The notes under the pieces were generated by a model that was given only the letters and a program-made list of their open reading frames with translations, made no database searches and was not told the origin of the DNA. From Ochrobactrum vermis (GTDB lineage Bacteria > Pseudomonadota > Alphaproteobacteria > Rhizobiales > Rhizobiaceae), in the NCBI RefSeq assembly GCF_002975205.1, contig NZ_PCOC01000001.1, positions 1,240,001 through 1,304,000 of the forward strand: a stretch of DNA of 64,000 nucleotides, written 5' to 3'. The translations under genes were made by a program, and so were the position numbers. Below, one piece after another: positions 14,343 to 57,440 of this stretch. How positions within the stretch are numbered: position 1 is the first letter of the stretch; the number at the start of each line of letters is the position of its first letter.

Positions 14343-15029
14343 ATGGCTCTCAAAGCAATTCTGGCATCGCTTGACGGTATCGATGAGGCAATCAAGGCTC
14401 TCTATTTCGAGAAAGACGGCAAGTTCATTCTTGATGTCGAAGGCGTCGACGGGTTCTCACTGGAAGATGTGAACGGCCTTAAGACTGCACTCGGCAAGGA
14501 GCGCACCACTCGCGAGAACCTCGAAAAGCTGGTCGTAAAGTACAAGGATATTGATCCTGATAAGGCCCGCGAAGCTCTTACCAAACTGGAAGAACTGACC
14601 AGCATCGACCCGGCCAAGGAAGCCGACAAGATCGCAAACACGAAGTTTGAGGCAGCCAAGGCCCAGCTTCTTGAAAAGCACACCGGCGAGCTTACCAGCC
14701 GTGATGAGCGCATCGGCCATCTGACCAAGACAGTTGAGGGCCTGCTCATTGATGCTGCCGCAACGTCTGCGCTGGCTGAAGCGAAGGGTTCGGTTGAACT
14801 GCTCCTTCCTCATGTCCGGGCTCACACCCGCGTCAAGGAAGTCGACGGCAAGTTTACGGTCGAAGTGATCGACAAGGACGGCAATGCAAAGATTGCGGAT
14901 TCCAAGGGTACTCCGATGGATATCTCCGGTCTGGTTGCTGAGATGAAGGAATCTGATGCGTTCGGACGGGCTGTTGGTTTGCACGCGGAACTGAGCCAGT
15001 TTTTCCACCGAGAAGTGAGCCACCTCTAA
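14343..15029 (+). pseudogene. Phage scaffold protein, 3' end replaced by IS21
   Basis: Starts at ATG 14343. About 209 native residues form a highly charged coiled-coil protein (residues 30-150 rich in K, E, D) like minor-structural/scaffolding proteins of the GP20 type. At 14972 the reading frame runs into the IS21 element, and the last 19 codons to the stop at 15027-15029 are IS sequence (A-V-G-L-H-A-E-L...). The natural C-terminus, which usually contacts the major capsid protein, is missing. The major capsid gene expected next is absent. Confidence 0.75.
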
Positions 15030-15043
15030 GTATGGTTTTCTGA

Positions 15044-15838
15044 TCAGGGTTTAGTCAAGGGATTGGCGTTTTGTCCTCTCTTCTGTGCTGCGGCTGCCGA
15101 GCTGGCCTTGAAGCGGAAGCTGTCGTTCCCTGTTTCCAGGATATGGCAGCGATGGGTCAAACGATCGAGCAATGCGGTTGTCATCTTGGCGTCGCCGAAG
15201 ACGGTTGCCCATTCGCTGAAGCTGAGGTTGGTGGTAATCACAACGCTCGTCCGTTCATAGAGCTTGCTCAGAAGGTGGAAGAGCAGTGCTCCCCCTGAGG
15301 CGCTGAACGGCAGGTATCCCAACTCGTCGAGGATGAGCAGATCAAGGCGGACCAAGGTCTCTGCGATCTGCCCCGCCTTGCCTTTAGCCTTCTCCTGCTC
15401 AAGCGCGTTGACCAATTCGATGGTCGAGAAGAATCGGACCTTTCGACGGTGATGCTCGATCGCCTGGATGCCGAGGGCGGTGGCGACATGTGTTTTTCCT
15501 GTGCCCGGTCCGCCGACAAGCACGATATTCTGCGCGCCGTCGATGAACTCGCATCTATGCAATTGGCGCACCGTCGCTTCGTTGATTTCGCTGGCGGCGA
15601 AGTCGTATCCGGAGAGGTCCTTGTAGGCTGGAAAGCGGGCAGCCTTCATGTGATAGGCGATGGACCGGACCTCGCGCTCGGCCATCTCGGCTTTCAGCAA
15701 CTGGGACAGGATCGGCACGGCTGCATCAAAGGCTGGAGCACCTTGCTCGATCAGGTCACTGACGGCTTGGGACATGCCATACATCTTCAGGCTTCGCAGC
15801 ATGATGACGACGGCGGCACTGGCTGGATCATGACGCAT
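15044..15838 (-). CDS. istB: IstB, IS21 helper ATPase
   Basis: A 264-residue AAA+ ATPase from ATG 15838 (overlapping the istA stop). Walker A is [10 protein letters not shown] and Walker [10 protein letters not shown], followed by sensor residues in [12 protein letters not shown]. IstB binds target DNA and activates the IstA transposase. Length is normal for the family and the frame is intact, so this IS could be active. Confidence 0.93.
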
Positions 15839-17360
15839 GGCGACCTCCAACGATCCGGACACGCAGGCCATCATAGCGTTCGACATTGGCCTTGGGTTCG
15901 CGCAGCAAAGTCAGTGCCTGTGGCGTATCGACGTCGGGACCGTCAGTCGTCTTATCGTCGATCAGCATATGCAGCAGGTTTAGCACATGCATTTTGGTTG
16001 CCACGCCTTGATCCAAAGCCAATTCCACAGCACTGATGACGGCCTGTTCGTTGTGATGAAGGACGAGGGCAAGGATATCGGCCATCTCACGATCACCACC
16101 AGGGCGGCGCAGCATCTGCTCCTGCAGCTGTCGAAAGGCCAGCGGCAATTCCAGGAAGGGTGCGCCATTGCGCAGTGCTCCAGGCTTGCGCTGGATGACC
16201 GCAAGGTAATGGCGCCAGTCGTAAATCGTCCTCGGCGGTTTGTCGTGGCTGCGTTCTATGATCCGCGGATGTTCGCAAAGGATATTGCCCTCGGCCGCAA
16301 CGACCAGTCGCTCGGGATAAATCCTCAGGCTGACGGGCCGGTTCGCAAAAGACGCAGGCACGCTGTAACGATTGCGCTCGAAGGTGATCAGGCATGTCGG
16401 CGAGACGCGCTTGCTCTGCTCGACGAAGCCGTCAAACATGGCGGGGAGCGCCATCAATGCTGCCCGCTCATCAGCCCAAACATCCGCGATCGAGCCGGAC
16501 AAGGTGCCATGCGCTGTCTCCCGCCACAGGTCCTGGCAATGCTGTTCCAGCCAGATATTCAATGCCCCCAAATCTGGAAAGTCGGGCATCTGTTGCCACA
16601 GCCGCGGTCGGGCATCCTGGACGTTCTTCTCGACCTGCCCCTTCTCCCAGCCCGCGGCGGGATTGCAGAACTCTGGCGCAAAGACGTAATGGTTCGTCAT
16701 CGCAAGGAAACGGATGTTGACCTGTCGCTCCTTGCCGCGGCCCACACGATCGACCGCTGTCTTCATGTTATCGTAGATGCCACGACCAGGCACGCCGCCA
16801 AACACGCGGAAGCCGTGCCAATGGGCGTCAAACAGCATCTCATGCGTCTGCAACAGGTAGGCCCTGACAAAAAACGCGCGACTGTGCGATAGCTTGATAT
16901 GCGCGACCTGAAGCTTCGTGCGCTCGCCGCCTATCACGGCATAGTCCTCACTCCAATCGAACTGGAATGCTTCGCCTGGTCGGAAAGACAGCGGAACGAA
17001 TATGCCGCGGCCCGTCGTCTGCTGCTCACGTTGCCGATCAGCCCGCCAATCACGAGCGAATGCGGCGACCCGACCATAGGAGCCGGTAAAGCCGAGAACC
17101 ACCAGATCGGAATGAAGCTGCTTCAGTGTTCGGCGCTGCTTGCGCGACTTTCCGGTCTCGGTCTTCAGCCAGGCCGCGAGTTTGTCGGCAAAAGGATCAA
17201 GCTTGCTCGGTCGTTCCGGTACCGTGAACGTCGGCTCTATCGTACCCGCGCTCAAATACTTCGCGATCGTGTTGCGCGACAGACCGGTGCGCCGGCTGAT
17301 CTCGCGGATCGACTGCTTCTCTCGCAGCGCCATGCGCCGGATGATGTTTAAAAGTCCCAT
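15828..17360 (-). CDS. istA: IstA, IS21 transposase
   Basis: A 510-residue DDE transposase from ATG 17360. It has an N-terminal helix-turn-helix ([20 protein letters not shown]), a retroviral-type integrase core with [11 protein letters not shown] as the first Asp and [12 protein letters not shown] as the second, and the downstream Glu in GQVEKNVQ. The C-terminal domain is basic. It overlaps istB by 11 bases, the normal coupled arrangement. Confidence 0.93.
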
Positions 17361-17476
17361 GTGGATCACTCCGCTGCCCCCGTCGCTCACCGCGTTGGGG
17401 GGAAGGTTCACATGGCTCAGTTCTCAATGGAAATTATCTGCCTAACTGGCTCAGTTCTGCGTGGAAACCAACATCG

Positions 17477-34485: not shown

Positions 34486-35163
34486 TCAAAACAAACTTGC
34501 CTGCGCTTCCTTATTGTCATTGCTTGGTGTGAGGTCGATCAGATCCGCATCGGGCAAGGGCTTTTGCATTTCCTTGGCTTCATCCCATGGAGCGCGTAGC
34601 CAGGTGTCTATTTCCTCCGTAGTGCGGAGAATGACTGGCATTGCCTTTGGATGGATCGGTTTCACCACGGCGTTTGGCTCGGTCGTGAGAAACCCGAAGA
34701 TATCGACCTCTACCGGCCCCTCTTTCTTCTTCCTCACGCCTTTCCAACCGGTCCAGATGCCAGCGAATGCGAAAAGCGGCTTCTCTTCATTGAGAGCGAA
34801 CCAGTGAAGCGGCTTTCGTTTGGTCTTCGGGTCCGGTTCCTGCCCATATTCGGAAAAGGAAGTGGCTGGAACGACGCAACGGCTTTCAACGCCCTGCCAA
34901 CGCCGCCAGTGAGGCGAGGTGAGGTTGCGGATATTCGTTACTCCGCCATCTGCTTCACCCTTCACATACATCGGTGGCGTCGGCATGCCCCAGCGGAGCA
35001 TTGCGAGCTCTGGTTCGTCGCCTTTGATGTTTCGCAATACCGGGGCCGGATAGTCGGGATACACGTCAAGTTGAGGATCAACCCGGTTCGTCACGTCTCC
35101 GAATTTCGGAAACAGGCGGCGCATGGCCTCATGTGCCGTGGTCAGGTTATATAGATTGCACAT
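34486..35163 (-). CDS. SRAP domain protein (YedK/HMCES family)
   Basis: A 225-residue protein starting MCNLYNLT, with the catalytic Cys2 used by SRAP proteins to crosslink abasic sites in single-stranded DNA. Conserved family motifs follow: YPAPVLRN, MLRWGMPTPP, the N-I-R-N/R segment, ESRCVVPATSFSEY, FAFAGIW and HPKAMPVIL. The family shields abasic sites during replication and is often SOS-induced. It is the last gene of a leftward operon with a LexA box at 36164-36178. A broken paralogue lies at 55546-56112. Confidence 0.9.
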   Translation of the reverse strand: MCNLYNLTTAHEAMRRLFPKFGDVTNRVDPQLDVYPDYPAPVLRNIKGDEPELAMLRWGMPTPPMYVKGEADGGVTNIRNLTSPHWRRWQGVESRCVVPATSFSEYGQEPDPKTKRKPLHWFALNEEKPLFAFAGIWTGWKGVRKKKEGPVEVDIFGFLTTEPNAVVKPIHPKAMPVILRTTEEIDTWLRAPWDEAKEMQKPLPDADLIDLTPSNDNKEAQASLF

Positions 35164-35196: not shown

Positions 35197-35382
35197 TTAT
35201 TTGCGCCGTCCAGTGAGAGCGTCCTCGCCTTCAAGCTTATGGGCGCGACAGAACCACAGTTGTCCGTGCGTCGTTTTGTAACCGAACGTTCCCCATTCCT
35301 TACAGTCCTTCGAATCGCAAAGATGCACGAACAGGCTTCCAGCCTTCGCCACGTGCGCATTGTCGTTCTTGTATCCCGCCAT
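35197..35382 (-). CDS. Small Cys/His zinc-binding-like protein (61 aa), SOS operon
   Basis: Residues 22-46 read LCDSKDCKEWGTFGY followed by LWFCRAHK, a C-x4-C...C-x2-H pattern that could bind one zinc. Its ATG overlaps the stop of the gene before it (TAATG). It lies between the 101-residue gene and SRAP in the LexA-box operon. Function unknown. Confidence 0.55.
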   Translation of the reverse strand: MAGYKNDNAHVAKAGSLFVHLCDSKDCKEWGTFGYKTTHGQLWFCRAHKLEGEDALTGRRK

Positions 35383-35687
35383 TAGTACCAGCTCTTTCTG
35401 TCATTCCACTTATACGGTCGCTGAAACTCCAGCCGGTTGGTATCGCGCAGTTCTTCAAACATCCGTTTCACTAGGCTTACGACTTCTTCCTTGTCCTCAC
35501 ATACTCCGTAAGGAAGGTCTTGGAACGGGCTACGACATTCAACCAGACACCATTTCCACGTCCCAGCGCTCGGACCAAAGTCGCTTCTCAGGATTCGGCA
35601 GAAGCTACCCCATTCAGTGTATGCTATGAAGTCACCGGCGCATGTTTGTCCGCCAATGACAGTTCGACACCATTTAAGCTGCATCAT
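35382..35687 (-). CDS. Unknown protein of the SOS operon (101 aa)
   Basis: A 101-residue protein rich in Cys and Trp (CRTVIGGQTCAGDFIAYTEW) with a helical C-terminal half. Start overlaps the stop of the zinc-ribbon gene by ATGA; there are two consecutive ATG codons. No family recognised. Confidence 0.5.
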   Translation of the reverse strand: MMQLKWCRTVIGGQTCAGDFIAYTEWGSFCRILRSDFGPSAGTWKWCLVECRSPFQDLPYGVCEDKEEVVSLVKRMFEELRDTNRLEFQRPYKWNDRKSWY

Positions 35688-35893
35688 TTCTCAGGCAGTC
35701 CGTAGCTGATGAAGTTGCCAGCCTTGTTCCCGCATTTGCTGCAAACCAGGCGGGGTTCGATCTCTTCGAGAGTAACCCACTCGCCGAAGCGAGCGGCCAT
35801 AAGTGGGGCAGTCTTTTCCAGATAATTCCGACAACGGGAGCAGCTAAAGCGCACCACATTTCGCGGGCGCAGTTCTCGCAGTACCGTTCGCAT
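35684..35893 (-). CDS. Zinc-ribbon protein (69 aa), SOS operon
   Basis: Residues 18-54 contain FSCSRCRNYL and RLVCSKCGN, two CxxC knuckles that form a zinc ribbon. It is the second gene of the LexA-box operon and overlaps the next gene by ATGA. A DNA- or protein-binding role is likely for the fold; the target is unknown. Confidence 0.58.
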   Translation of the reverse strand: MRTVLRELRPRNVVRFSCSRCRNYLEKTAPLMAARFGEWVTLEEIEPRLVCSKCGNKAGNFISYGLPEK

Positions 35894-35894
35894 T

Positions 35895-36092
35895 TCACTT
35901 CACGAAAATTGTAGGCTTCCAGCCACGTGCAAAGCCCATCGACATAGCCATACTGGCATATTCGATCTCTTTGACGAGAAAATCCCGATCTTTCAGAAGT
36001 GCCTCTATCGCAGCTCGCACGTCGCCCTTGTGATAGGCGAGAACCAATTCAATTTCATCGTCGTATTCATTTTCCTGCGCAACCGCATTCAT
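35895..36092 (-). CDS. MNAVAQ-family small protein, copy 1 (65 aa)
   Basis: Start at ATG 36092 (GGAG seven bases upstream). Acidic N-terminus, then YHKGDVRAAIEALLKDRDFL, a helical core shared with two paralogues at 56405-56602 and 57014-57199. All three are the first gene behind a LexA box. C-terminus: MAMSMGFARGWKPTIFVK. No known domain; the shared core and shared regulation suggest a damage-inducible regulator or accessory factor, which is inference. Confidence 0.65.
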   Translation of the reverse strand: MNAVAQENEYDDEIELVLAYHKGDVRAAIEALLKDRDFLVKEIEYASMAMSMGFARGWKPTIFVK

Positions 36093-36163: not shown

Positions 36164-36178
36164 GTTCTTATTCTGTTC
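36164..36178 (-). promoter_or_regulatory. LexA (SOS) box 1
   Basis: GTTC-TTATTCT-GTTC fits the alphaproteobacterial LexA operator GTTC-N7-GTTC exactly. It lies 72 bases upstream of the start of the MNAVAQ copy 1 gene and so should control the five-gene operon that ends with SRAP. Confidence 0.75.
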
Positions 36179-36252
36179 ACGGTTGTTTAGGAGAGTCAAA
36201 CTGAATCTCGGGGCAGGGCTATGGAGCGGATCAAAAATTCCACAGAAAGAGA

Positions 36253-36320: not shown

Positions 36321-36370
36321 ATCCCTTCACACGGGAGGGGTCACAGGTTCAATCCCTGTCACGCCCACCA
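36321..36370 (+). other. attR of prophage 1: 3' half of tRNA-Val(CAC)
   Basis: The segment runs from an anticodon stem and loop with CAC (CCCTTCACACGGG) through a variable loop GGGGTC, a perfect T-arm (ACAGGTTCAATCCCTGT) and ACGCCCACCA. The 5' half (acceptor 5' strand and D-arm) is missing; the sequence before it does not pair. This is what an integration into the 3' end of a tRNA-Val gene leaves at the far end of a prophage. The intact tRNA and the integrase should lie to the left of the window. Confidence 0.75.
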
Positions 36371-36469
36371 TTTAACTTCCTGTTTTATAGAAATAATTGG
36401 TGCGGTTTATTTCGTCCGCCCGATATTCGTCGTCTCCACCGCAGTCTTGTTCATTTTTATCCCGCAGGA

Positions 36470-42390: not shown

Positions 42391-42467
42391 GCACCCGTAG
42401 CTCAGCTGGATAGAGTGCTGCCCTCCGAAGGCAGAGGTCGCAGGTTCGAATCCTGCCGGGTGCGCCA
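42391..42467 (+). tRNA. tRNA-Arg(CCG)
   Basis: Complete cloverleaf with encoded CCA: acceptor GCACCCG/CGGGTGC, D-arm from GCTCAGCTGGATAGAGT, anticodon stem CTGCC/GGCAG with loop CTCCGAA (anticodon CCG, reads CGG), T-arm GCAGGTTCGAATCCTGC. Its 3' part is the left attachment site of element 2. Confidence 0.95.
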
Positions 42468-42468
42468 T
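42420..42468. other. attL of element 2
   Basis: The 49 bases from the anticodon stem to just past CCA recur at 57392-57440 with two differences (G to A at the first T-stem position and C to T at its partner). The integrase remnant is immediately inside. Confidence 0.85.
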
Positions 42469-42522: not shown

Positions 42523-43491
42523 AAAAGTCGAGTGCGGATACCGCTTTTCGTAGATAATCCGGCGAGAATCGAGCGTAGACCTTGAATGTGATTGCCGGTG
42601 AGGAATGCCCCAGATATTGGGTGATCTCATCCATCGATACGCCAGCTTCAGCCATCCAAACGGCAGCGCTGTGTCGTAGGTCATGCGGAACGACATCGGT
42701 CAAGCCCGCACGACGCACAGCTCCAGCAAAGCCCTTTTTAATGTCGAGCACGCGCTCGCCACCGTATTCCACCACGTAGGGCGACTGTCGAGCCGCATGG
42801 GCCTCCTGCAATACGGCAAACGCACTGTCTCGGTCATTGGCACCGTGGCGCGGCCCTTGCGGTTCTTGTCACCAACGATGCCTAACATGATCAGCTTGCG
42901 ATCGAAGTCCACTCGATCCCAGGTTAATTGAAGGATTGCTGTTTTTCGCGCAGCCGTTGTCAACGCCAGTACGCAGAATAGGCGCATGTGAGGCGAGGAA
43001 CATCCGCCCAACAGCCGTTTGTACTCGGCTTTTGTCAAGTGTCGGTCACGCGGCGGCGATGCAGGTGGCGCCTCAAAACGCGCGCCATTAACGCCACGCC
43101 AATTCAATGCTTGGCGGATGACGTTAATTTCCTTCAGCACAGTGGCTTCTTTTCGACCAGCTAGATAACGGCTCGTGGCATACTCAGTGCAGATGTCCTC
43201 GGTGATCTGATCTGGCCGCAGGTGCGCAAAATGACCTTCAGCTTGTTTTCAGGCATATCGAAGCCGTTCTGGATTAGCGATTTTGCCATCCTTTGCTTCA
43301 ATATATGCAGCGACAATATCGCCGACGAGTGAGCCCGTCGGCGCTGCAAAATCGCGTTTGAAATCTTGTAGGCGACGTGCGGCCTCATCACTATCAGTGG
43401 TGCACAGGCTTCGTCGGTGCGTTGATTTTCCGTCGTGCCAAACGGCGTACCATTTGCCGCGGAAAAGCTTTTGTCGGACATCGTAGGACAT
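42521..43491 (-). pseudogene. int: Tyrosine integrase, inactivated
   Basis: Start MSYDVRQKLFRGKWYAVW at 43491. A stop codon (TGA for an expected Trp) interrupts the frame at 43249-43251; the frame then continues normally (KQAEGHFAHLRPDQ, NVIRQALNW). A one-base shift near 42832 moves the rest into another frame (QEAHAARQSPYVVEYGGERV, then PHDLRHSAAVW, YLGHSSPAIT and the nucleophile Tyr in YARFSPDYL). All catalytic motifs are recognisable, so this was a normal integrase of about 320 residues, now with two lesions. Confidence 0.8.
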
Positions 43492-55545: not shown

Positions 55546-56112
55546 TTAGAACAAACTTGCCTGCTCTTTCTTATTATCATTGCTTGGTGTGAGGTCGATC
55601 AGATCAGCATCGGGCAGGGGTTTTTGCATTTCCTTGGCTTCATCCCATGGAGCGCGTAGCCAAGTGTCGATCTCCTCCGTGGTTCGGAGTATGACCGGCA
55701 TTGCCTTCGGGTGAACTGGCTTCATGACAGCATTCGGCTCGGTCGTGAGACCCCCGAAGATATCGACCTCGACCGGCCGGCCCTTCCTTTTTCTTCCGTA
55801 CACCCTTCCAGCTTGTCCAGATGCCAGCGAATGCGAAAAGCGGCTTCTCTTCATTGAGAGCGAACCAGTGAAGCGGCTTTCGTTTGGTCTTCGGGTCCGG
55901 TTCCTGCCCGTATTCGGAGAAGGATGTAGCAGGAACAACGCATCGGCTTTGAAATAGGTATGCGTTCCGTATTTGCGTTGAAGCCTCTCTTTATCGATCG
56001 ATCCGATGTGGCCGCAGCGGCAACAGAAACCGTATAGCTCGTACCACTTAAACAGGTCCATTATCCGGGTCGATACCGGCATTTCGGTCAGGTAAAGCGG
56101 GCGCGATTTCAT
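55546..56112 (-). pseudogene. Chimera: Cys-rich gene start fused to a broken SRAP gene
   Basis: From ATG 56112 the first 57 residues (MKSRPLYLTEMPVSTRIMDL, then YGFCCRCGHIGSID) belong to a small zinc-knuckle protein. At about 55950 the sequence switches into SRAP DNA matching 34486-34900, first in the wrong frame (S-E-Y-G-Q-E-P-D region read as P-N-T-G-R-N-R), then after an indel near 55790 in the right frame (VEVDIFGGLTTEPNAV, HPKAMPVILRTTEEIDTWLR to the end). The catalytic N-terminus of SRAP is absent. Almost certainly a deletion remnant. Confidence 0.72.
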
Positions 56113-56180: not shown

Positions 56181-56408
56181 TTAGATGAACTCCTGCTGGC
56201 CTTCGACGGTCTGGAATTTCACAATCCAGAAATGATGACCTTCATGATACTGACGGCCGTGCAAGCGGTAGGCGCCCAGCCGATGTTCATCTGCGATCAC
56301 TTCCAGAAGCCTTCTGCGTAGTTCATCGGTGAGATACAAAACCACCTGGAACAGGTATTCCTTATTGATCAGCGTCTTCGGAGGCTCGCCACGGGATCTG
56401 CCACTCAT
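56181..56408 (-). CDS. Unknown protein of SOS unit 2 (75 aa)
   Basis: Follows MNAVAQ copy 2 with an ATGA overlap (56405-56408). YLFQVVLYLTDELRRRLLEV and RLHGRQYHEGHHFWIVKF suggest an alpha/beta fold. No equivalent is present in the 35-36 kb operon. Confidence 0.48.
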   Translation of the reverse strand: MSGRSRGEPPKTLINKEYLFQVVLYLTDELRRRLLEVIADEHRLGAYRLHGRQYHEGHHFWIVKFQTVEGQQEFI

Positions 56409-56602
56409 TTCACGAACACCGTCGGTTTCCAGCCTCGCGCAAAGCCCATCGACATAGCCATACTGGCGTATTCGATCTCTTTAACGAGAAAATCCCGATC
56501 TTTCAGAAGCGTCTCTATCGCAGCCCGCGCATCGCCGTTGTGGTAGGTGAGAACCAATTCAATTTCGTCGTCGTATTCATTTTCCTGCGCAACCGCATTC
56601 AT
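56405..56602 (-). CDS. MNAVAQ-family small protein, copy 2 (65 aa)
   Basis: Nearly identical to the protein at 35895-36092; differences include YHNGDARAAIETLLKDRDFL and the C-terminal KPTVFVK. Start at ATG 56602, with a LexA box 84 bases upstream. It heads a degraded copy of the SRAP cassette. Confidence 0.65.
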   Translation of the reverse strand: MNAVAQENEYDDEIELVLTYHNGDARAAIETLLKDRDFLVKEIEYASMAMSMGFARGWKPTVFVK

Positions 56603-56685
56603 TGTCCTGCTCCGAGTGAAGCAGACACACACGCCGCCAAGCATGTCTGGATTTCATCAGCGTCGCTCGCTGATGTTCCTAAAAT

Positions 56686-56700
56686 GTTCTCATCTGAATT
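56686..56700 (-). promoter_or_regulatory. LexA (SOS) box 2
   Basis: GTTC-CTAAAAT-GTTC, an exact GTTC-N7-GTTC operator, upstream of MNAVAQ copy 2. The 254 bases from here to 56954 hold no supported gene. Confidence 0.72.
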
Positions 56701-56954
56701 GAGAGACAATCGCTATCTTGAAGCTGTGGAAACCCGGTGGATTGTCTGTGGATTTCCTGTGCGTTTTCATGGCTCGCTCAACAAACGACCGTCTTCTGCC
56801 AAATGCCATCGCCAAAAGGCTTGTCGCCATGTCTCCGCATGAAAGCGCTCATGCACCTCTCTGTAGGAAAGCTGAACACGCAGAAGCCTATTCCAGACTT
56901 GCGAGCCATACGATGAGGCAATCTGGCGCCGAGCCGATCTGCATCACGATGAAC

Positions 56955-57017
56955 CTAGCGACGCGCAAACTTCAGCGCGTAAGTTTCGGGGAGGGCAACC
57001 TGGTACGTTTTCATCAT
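56955..57017 (-). CDS. 20-aa peptide coupled to MNAVAQ copy 3
   Basis: A short frame (M-M-K-T-Y-Q-V-A-L-P-E-T-Y) whose ATG-ATG overlaps the stop of the gene before it. It ends at TAG after 20 codons and may be the start of a gene that was truncated. Confidence 0.3.
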   Translation of the reverse strand: MMKTYQVALPETYALKFARR

Positions 57018-57199
57018 GCTGCCCTCTTAAAAAAATCGACAAGTTGGCCATGGGTGACCGCAAGTCGCGAAAGCTCGACTTCGCGAACAAGAAAGTCGCG
57101 GTCCTTCAAAAGCGCCTCGATTGCGGCGTGCACGTCTCCGCCGTGATAGGCGAGAACTTCCTCGATTTCAGCTTCATAGCTTTGGACAAGAGCGTTCAT
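57014..57199 (-). CDS. MNAVAQ-family small protein, copy 3 (61 aa, diverged)
   Basis: Start at ATG 57199. Shares the core YHGGDVHAAIEALLKDRDFL with copies 1 and 2 but has a different C-terminus (VTHGQLVDFFKRAA). LexA box 3 lies only 24 bases upstream, overlapping the promoter region. It is the outermost gene of element 2, about 190 bp from attR. Confidence 0.62.
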   Translation of the reverse strand: MNALVQSYEAEIEEVLAYHGGDVHAAIEALLKDRDFLVREVELSRLAVTHGQLVDFFKRAA

Positions 57200-57222
57200 G
57201 GTTTTCTCCTGTTTCAATATGT

Positions 57223-57237
57223 GTTCTTATTTTGTTC
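57223..57237 (-). promoter_or_regulatory. LexA (SOS) box 3
   Basis: GTTC-TTATTTT-GTTC, exact GTTC-N7-GTTC, immediately upstream of MNAVAQ copy 3 and 155 bp from attR. Confidence 0.75.
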
Positions 57238-57391: not shown

Positions 57392-57440
57392 GCCCTCCGA
57401 AGGCAGAGGTCACAGGTTCGAATCCTGTCGGGTGCGCCAT
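57392..57440. other. attR of element 2: 3' part of tRNA-Arg(CCG)
   Basis: Repeats 42420-42468 with two compensating changes in the T-stem (G-C pair to A-T). It ends in GCGCCAT. The 5' tRNA half is absent here. Confidence 0.85.

What the first reader, a model, noticed from the sequence alone, without database searches (positions are those of the whole stretch)
56405..57237. Two further LexA-box units in a different element, headed by paralogues of the same small gene
Element 2, integrated at another tRNA, carries two more exact LexA boxes (56686-56700, 57223-57237), each just upstream of a gene sharing the core GD-x2-AAIE-x-LLKDRDFL with 35895-36092. In both elements the outermost box lies about 150 bp inside the right att site and reads inward. 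Three independent copies with the same regulation and location imply a selected, mobile SOS module whose lead protein has no known function.
Basis: partly seen in the sequence, partly recalled or inferred. Interest (0 to 1): 0.72.

Follow-up and report, generated by a model that had tools for sequence, protein, structure and literature searches.

The report
DNA-damage-switched gene module at prophage ends
Two prophage-type elements in this genome end in genes predicted to be switched on by DNA damage, each set headed by a small protein family of unknown function whose relatives in related bacteria, plasmids and phages mostly carry the same predicted switch.

Summary
Each overlaps the -10 region of a likely promoter feeding a small gene ("LEAD"). 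Right att sites lie 142 and 154 bp outside the outer boxes. Element 1 is a ~50.5-kb prophage in tRNA-Val with a 55-bp exact att repeat; element 2 is a decayed remnant in tRNA-Arg.

LEAD is a conserved, unnamed family. An exact box lies within 300 bp upstream in 73/80 genomic and 46/65 viral genes, against 50/4439 random windows. LEAD often heads a row of small genes plus SRAP (YedK/HMCES type). In 75/80 viral contigs the box side faces the nearer end. In 18/18 Phyllobacterium-type loci LEAD keeps the box without SRAP, nearly all at one chromosomal place.

"Three independent copies" is not right: element 2 holds a B-A tandem pair also seen in seven other loci. Best reading: an SOS-inducible damage-tolerance cargo module of Hyphomicrobiales prophages and plasmids, with LEAD as a small soluble adaptor. 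An antirepressor role is unlikely: the three phage repressors examined carry the S24 self-cleavage domain. The biochemical function of LEAD is untested.

The parts
36321..36375 (.). attR of element 1 (end of tRNA-Val(CAC); 55-bp exact direct repeat with the tRNA gene outside the window)
   Evidence: blastn and ARAGORN on joined neighbouring stretches
36194..36199 (-). -35 element TTGACT of the element-1 promoter (predicted)
   Evidence: sequence shown; family-wide rule
36164..36178 (-). LexA-type box (GAACAGAATAAGAAC read with the gene), overlapping the predicted -10 region
35895..36092 (-). LEAD gene A1 (65 aa)
35684..35893 (-). 69-aa protein with Cys pairs, next gene
35382..35687 (-). 101-aa protein (phrog_12188, unknown function)
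35197..35382 (-). 61-aa Cys-rich protein, called p61 here (phrog_29777; EsV-1-7 motif below its cut-off)
34486..35163 (-). SRAP (YedK/HMCES type); Cys2 present and Asn, Glu and His in the motifs where they are expected
   Evidence: PF02586 E 6e-25; phrog_1599; motifs; residue roles from PMC3765255
57392..57440 (.). attR of element 2 (copy of the tRNA-Arg(CCG) end)
57223..57237 (-). outer LexA-type box of element 2 (GAACAAAATAAGAAC)
57014..57199 (-). LEAD gene B (61 aa, ends FKRAA instead of RGWKP; conserved subtype)
56675..56689 (-). inner LexA-type box of element 2 (GAACATTTTAGGAAC)
56405..56602 (-). LEAD gene A2 (65 aa, 92% identical to A1)
56181..56408 (-). p75 gene, ends early (75 aa; the relative in L294 has 99 aa)
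55546..56112 (-). SRAP remnant: an open frame of which only the C-terminal part matches SRAP (residues 121-168 of 188, below the cut-off)
42391..42468 (+). tRNA-Arg(CCG) with the left att repeat of element 2 (42420-42468)
42700..43140 (-). integrase-like fragment next to the left att of element 2
   Evidence: PF00589 E 5e-6, 26.8 bits against a cut-off of 27.1

Best explanation
The three boxes are most likely operators of LexA-controlled promoters that sit just inside the right ends of two prophage-derived elements. When DNA is damaged, host LexA should be cleaved and each promoter should fire, giving the LEAD protein and, in the intact element 1, three further small proteins and SRAP. SRAP of the YedK/HMCES type binds covalently to abasic sites in single-stranded DNA (recalled). 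The module is therefore most likely a damage-tolerance cargo that protects replicating phage or host DNA while SOS is on. LEAD is most likely a small acidic helical adaptor that acts early in that response, at single-stranded DNA or on a repair or RecA-LexA partner, and not only through SRAP, because it also stands alone. Shown here: boxes, promoter geometry, family-wide box linkage, gene order, terminal placement, purifying selection. Inferred: LexA binding and induction, the SRAP role here, and above all what LEAD does.
For: Box within 300 bp upstream of LEAD in 73/80 genomic and 46/65 viral genes against 50/4439 random windows; TTGAC 19-23 bases before the box in 94/110 distinct contexts. 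Host recA in the same genome has the same type of box (GAACGATCATGGAAC). SRAP within 3 kb downstream in 57/77 viral and 23/73 genomic genes with at least 3 kb held. LEAD followed by small genes and SRAP in Sinorhizobium phage phi2LM21 and in 3 of 8 annotated plasmid regions viewed (the other five are). Terminal placement, 75/80. LEAD with a box in 18/18 Phyllobacterium-type loci, SRAP 0/18. Distant relatives in the order keep a box in 12 of 21 loci. Purifying selection.
Against: No expression or binding data. SRAP is missing near LEAD in 20/77 viral and 50/73 genomic genes with enough sequence, so the LEAD-SRAP link may be only shared regulation. In element 2 SRAP is a remnant and p75 ends early, while both LEAD genes are intact. 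19 of 65 viral LEAD genes lack a box within 300 bp; 12 of these 19 have one 303-382 bp up, before another small gene, and 6 of 56 still lack one at 500 bp. On nine plasmid loci fetched, 6 have a box within 300 bp, one has it at 477 bp and two have none in reach. The adaptor role rests on weak resemblance to eukaryotic UBA domains, all below Pfam's cut-offs.
Confidence: 0.55

Rival explanations
1. LEAD is a LexA-controlled antirepressor like GfoA of Gifsy-1: it binds the prophage repressor and couples induction to SOS.
For: Small LexA-type-controlled gene outside the immunity region of prophages, as in Lemire et al. 2011 (PMC3121763, abstract and section list seen).
Against: Repressors of element 1, phi2LM21 and Rivra all carry the S24 self-cleavage domain (E 4e-8, 8e-15, 3e-9), so the 3 phages examined should not need an antirepressor. 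LEAD with its box is also kept in Phyllobacterium-type chromosomes with no phage gene noticed among the recurrent neighbours and on plasmids.
Confidence: 0.1
2. LEAD is an SOS-induced checkpoint protein that stops cell division or replication while damage is repaired, as SulA and SidA do (recalled).
For: Small first gene of an SOS-type promoter, able to stand without SRAP; the family varies in its C-terminal tail (FKRAA, RGWKP and others), as a target-binding tail might.
Against: No membrane stretch in 162 members (highest 19-residue hydropathy 1.31), unlike SidA (recalled). No Pfam, NCBIfam or PHROG match to known inhibitors.
Confidence: 0.2
3. LEAD modulates RecA or LexA directly, as DinI or PsiB do (recalled), tuning SOS in favour of the mobile element.
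For: Small acidic proteins (median net charge -3 over 162 members), LexA-type control, presence on prophages and on plasmids of which about half are typed conjugative (57 of 118).
Against: No DinI or PsiB model appears in the Pfam and NCBIfam results; retention at one place in Phyllobacterium-type chromosomes.
Confidence: 0.2
4. Chance motifs: the boxes have no regulatory meaning.
For: GTTC-N7-GTTC occurs 6 times in the window against 2.33 expected, so single boxes prove little.
Against: Family-wide linkage and promoter geometry.
Confidence: 0.03

Closest known systems
SRAP/YedK-HMCES SOS operons (Aravind et al. 2013, PMC3765255)
   Same: SRAP under SOS-type control, with Zn-ribbon-like small neighbours and sometimes ATP-dependent DNA ligase; SRAP in temperate phages was noted there (passages and section 6 read).
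   Different: The passages and the section read describe SRAP next to umuCD, imuAB-dnaE2, dinB, Ku or a RecD-like helicase, not a LEAD-headed row at prophage ends; its additional file was not seen.
Sinorhizobium phage phi2LM21 gene block p58-p63 (PMC5537653)
   Same: Lead gene of the same family (phi2LM21_p63), a Cys-rich small protein (phi2LM21_p61) and SRAP (p58); LexA-type box 91 bp before the lead gene.
   Different: The passages found name SRAP (p58) as an extra gene; the term LexA does not occur in that main text.
LexA-controlled antirepressor genes of Gifsy prophages (PMC3121763)
   Same: Small LexA-controlled protein encoded outside the immunity region (abstract).
   Different: Those phages have repressors that are not cleaved; here the three repressors examined are S24 type, and LEAD also occurs without a phage.
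Alphaproteobacterial LexA regulon (PMC3323433, passages and section 7 read)
   Same: Same GTTC-N7-GTTC direct repeat.
   Different: The core named there is lexA, recA, dinB and/or polB, uvrA and imuA-imuB-dnaE2; the section text does not mention such a small lead gene (its figures were not seen).
UBA-type domains
   Same: The N-terminal GDxRAAIxALL region resembles UBA_HOIP and UBA_HYPK (best E 0.00065 and 0.0011); the only two PDB profile hits up to E 1 are 5nnp_C (E 0.26, listed as an uncharacterised protein; recalled to be HypK) and 4ae4 (E 0.82, ubiquitin-associated protein 1).
   Different: All below the curated cut-offs; the C-terminal RGWxP tail lies outside the matched part.

Membership tests
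Alphaproteobacterial LexA regulon | GTTC-N7-GTTC / GAAC-N7-GAAC direct repeat in the promoter | tested here: met
Alphaproteobacterial LexA regulon | Same motif at a known SOS gene (recA) of the same genome | tested here: met
   GAACGATCATGGAAC upstream of recA
Alphaproteobacterial LexA regulon | LexA binding and damage-dependent induction | not testable with these tools
   needs gel shift and RNA measurements
SRAP (PF02586) | Full-length domain with Cys2, Asn, Glu and His residues | tested here: met
   element 1, 34486-35163: E 6e-25, residues 1-205; motifs present, matched by eye
SRAP (PF02586), element 2 copy | Full-length domain with the N-terminal Cys | tested here: not met
   55546-56112 matches only over residues 121-168, below the cut-off
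LexA-controlled phage antirepressors (GfoA type) | LexA-type operator | tested here: met
LexA-controlled phage antirepressors (GfoA type) | Partner phage repressor lacks self-cleavage | tested here: not met
   S24 domain in the repressors of element 1, phi2LM21 and Rivra
LexA-controlled phage antirepressors (GfoA type) | Binds the repressor | not testable with these tools
   needs a binding assay
UBA domain | Match above the curated cut-off of a UBA family | tested here: not met
   best listed score 19.9 bits against a cut-off of 22.4; 4 of 47 members at E <= 0.01 for UBA_HOIP
UBA domain | Three-helix fold | not testable with these tools
SidA-like SOS division inhibitor | Single membrane segment (recalled) | tested here: not met
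   0 of 162 members above 1.6 hydropathy
DinI/PsiB | Sequence match to the family | tested here: not met
   no such model in the results

The most novel reading that the evidence does not exclude
LEAD founds a new superfamily of SOS effectors found, in these searches, almost only in Hyphomicrobiales: a shared acidic helical N-terminal core (GDxRAAIxALL) with exchangeable C-terminal tails (RGWxP, FKRAA and others), spread by prophages and plasmids and settled in chromosomes, that acts as an adaptor choosing which target is held or released during DNA damage.
Probability: 0.3. Interest if true: 0.7.

Novelty: new variant of a known kind. Interest (0 to 1): 0.52.

Why it matters
SOS regulons are usually described through core host genes. 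Here a small protein family with no name in the four libraries scanned carries a very consistent LexA-type promoter across many genera of one order, on phages, plasmids and chromosomes. That makes it a ready test case for what mobile elements add to the host damage response, and for why abasic-site protection (SRAP) is carried at prophage ends.

Tried and rejected
Rejected: chance motifs; decay of copy B (its FKRAA tail is conserved, 18 distinct genes with pN/pS 0.19); three independent insertions (B-A tandem pairs in seven other loci); antirepressor as the first choice.

Led nowhere: PADLOC and NCBIfam scans of LEAD; PHROGs with 47 members (one weak match); first gene calling, replaced by a codon-model caller. 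A class-wide search found LEAD in 2 of 289 genomes at E <= 1e-4, both of the same order, one of them the window's own; that search scored at most 21 first-look candidates in the genomes listed.

The viral set was capped at the best 80 of 108 and the genome set at the best 80 of 95. In one search no lead gene was called in 8 of the 163 loci given, and these drop out of the later box, SRAP and T-arm counts. One search used 52 of the 80 viral loci and the other 28; some contigs there are under 15 kb, where the nearer end means little. The T-arm count (21 of 139) held four artefact rows with negative distance and a biased denominator; one search recounts it as 16 of 134. In one search one of the 21 rows (L060) was read in a wrong frame. 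The Phyllobacterium-type loci are L229-L247 without L244 (18), chosen by neighbourhood; 16 are titled Phyllobacterium (one of them as Candidatus) and two (L240, L245) Rhizobiales bacterium. Names such as cold-shock, spanin, endolysin, transposase and dehydrogenase for neighbours were given by eye unless a call is cited.

Full report
What is there. The window lies at bases 1240001-1304000 of a contig of 2.83 Mb in a 5.4-Mb genome (contig length). The nearest named relatives of its lead gene are from Ochrobactrum and Brucella species. Exact GTTC-N7-GTTC boxes occur six times in the window; three concern this finding: 36164-36178, 56675-56689 and 57223-57237. Read with the genes, which lie on the minus strand, the boxes are GAAC-N7-GAAC.

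The elements. Element 1 is a prophage of about 50.5 kb. Its right end, window 36321-36375, repeats exactly, over 55 bp, the end of a tRNA-Val(CAC) gene at 1225818-1225872 of the contig. An integrase lies just inside that left end and a repressor with an S24 peptidase domain lies further in. Element 2 lies between tRNA-Arg(CCG) (42391-42467) and a 49-bp, 96% copy of its end at 57392-57440. It has an integrase-like fragment, frames that look like transposases by eye and broken genes, so I read it as a remnant.

The genes. A1 (35895-36092) and A2 (56405-56602) encode 65-aa proteins 92% identical to each other; B (57014-57199) encodes 61 aa. A fourth copy lies at 2172036 of the same contig with a box 87 bp upstream; no T-arm-like motif was found in the 10 kb around it. 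B lacks the RGWKP tail and ends FKRAA, but this is a conserved subtype: 18 distinct B genes have pN/pS 0.19 and 46 distinct A genes 0.21. B and A occur in tandem, B first, in seven other loci, so element 2 most likely holds one inherited pair, not two separate arrivals. In element 1, A1 is followed by a 69-aa, a 101-aa and a 61-aa protein and then SRAP with Cys2 and the Asn, Glu and His motifs. In element 2, p75 ends early and SRAP is reduced to an open frame matching only at its C-terminal part.

The promoter. In 110 distinct upstream contexts the box is preceded by TTGAC in 94, 86 of them at 19 or 20 bases and 8 at 21 or 23, against 42 of 3240 random 16-mers. In the window, element 1 has TTGACT; the two element-2 promoters are weaker matches (TTGTC, TTAAC). 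The box covers the -10 position, so LexA bound there should block RNA polymerase (inference). The recA gene of the same genome has the same type of box.

The family. Pfam, NCBIfam, PHROGs and PADLOC give it no name. Searches in whole genomes found it in 46 of 199 genomes of the family at E <= 0.01, 78 of 397 of the order at E <= 0.001, many of these weak, 27 of 35 of the genus, and 2 of 289 of the class at E <= 1e-4, both of the same order. One of the 80 loci (L256) comes from a metagenome bin titled Burkholderiaceae. In plasmid records 118 of 72,556 have a match at E <= 0.1, and in phage records 2 of 50,697.

Box linkage. In 111 genes on fetched loci 90 have a box within 300 bp; the box played no part in choosing the loci. 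Random 315-base windows in the same loci give 50 of 4439; other genes of the same loci give 87 of 1634, some through the same boxes. Of the 19 viral misses, 12 have a box 303-382 bp up, before another small gene. Among distant relatives in the order, 12 of 21 loci have a box within 300 bp. Of nine plasmid loci, 6 have one within 300 bp.

Neighbours. SRAP lies within 3 kb downstream in 57 of 77 viral and 23 of 73 genomic genes with enough sequence. A Cys-rich protein (p61, 59 genes), p75 (52) and a cold-shock-like protein (34) recur. A frequent order in prophages is LEAD, small genes, SRAP, more small genes, then what look like spanin and endolysin genes on the other strand. LEAD, small genes and SRAP are in Sinorhizobium phage phi2LM21, where a ligase, a holin and a chitinase gene face them, and LEAD, one further gene and SRAP-like RIVRA_30 in Agrobacterium phage Rivra. 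Of eight annotated plasmid regions viewed, three have SRAP annotated after LEAD and five do not. In 75 of 80 viral contigs the box side of LEAD faces the nearer end, 54 of 80 lie in the outer 10% and 67 of 80 in the outer 20%. A T-arm-like tRNA end lies within 500 bp outside the box in 16 of 134 genes with enough sequence, control 37 of 1590 windows; in loci L204-L228 and L244, mostly Brucella, Ochrobactrum and Falsochrobactrum, it is 11 of 28 genes.

A chromosomal form. In 18 of 18 Phyllobacterium-type loci LEAD has a box, and SRAP is absent in 18 of 18. Nearly all share a row of neighbours: a small basic protein, a cold-shock-like protein and a dehydrogenase-like gene (labels by eye). This matters for function: whatever LEAD does under SOS, it does not need a neighbouring SRAP or a phage there.

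Mechanism. The evidence fixes predicted control and context, not biochemistry. I think the most likely reading is damage tolerance: SRAP shields abasic sites and LEAD is a small soluble adaptor acting in the same response. LEAD is acidic (median net charge -3 over 162 members) and has no membrane stretch. Its N-terminal half has a weak likeness to UBA domains that does not reach any cut-off. The antirepressor rival is weakened by S24 repressors in 3 of 3 phages examined and by the chromosomal form. A checkpoint protein or a RecA/LexA modulator remain open.

What is known. Aravind et al. 2013 (PMC3765255; passages and section 6 read) described SRAP in SOS operons and temperate phages, with Zn-ribbon-like neighbours. 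The phi2LM21 paper (PMC5537653; passages seen) noted SRAP in that phage. A comparative study of SOS genes (PMC3323433; passages and section 7) names an alphaproteobacterial core without this gene in its text. Lemire et al. 2011 (PMC3121763; abstract and section list) gives the antirepressor model. I found no paper on the LEAD family in ten searches, which cover open-licence papers only and cannot search by sequence.

Verdict. The new part is the lead family and its independence from phage and SRAP; its function is the open question.

Noticed in passing
L366:18312-18326 (contig 1238312, left of the window, element 1 immunity region): A further box (GTTCTTGTTCCGTTC) sits just before a small gene (L366:18379-18636) that by eye resembles the gene preceding LEAD in Rivra-type phages.
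   Followed up: no
window 14972-17473: An IS21-like pair of frames (label recalled; 15044-15886 and 15828-17411) inside 30-bp inverted ends sits within prophage 1.
   Followed up: no
L377:2645-2659: Paracoccus phage Pyei1 carries SRAP near the end of its record with a GTTC-N7-GTTC box 356 bp upstream; no gene is annotated between them.
   Followed up: partly
L217, L218, L219, L221, L223: In these five loci LEAD is followed by the same four recurrent genes (c51-c54) and not by SRAP; four of the five have a tRNA-end-like motif about 183 bp outside the box.
   Followed up: no
weak matches: Several order-wide matches fall inside open frames of about 900 aa (around positions 8-53 of the model); the protein was not identified.
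   Followed up: no
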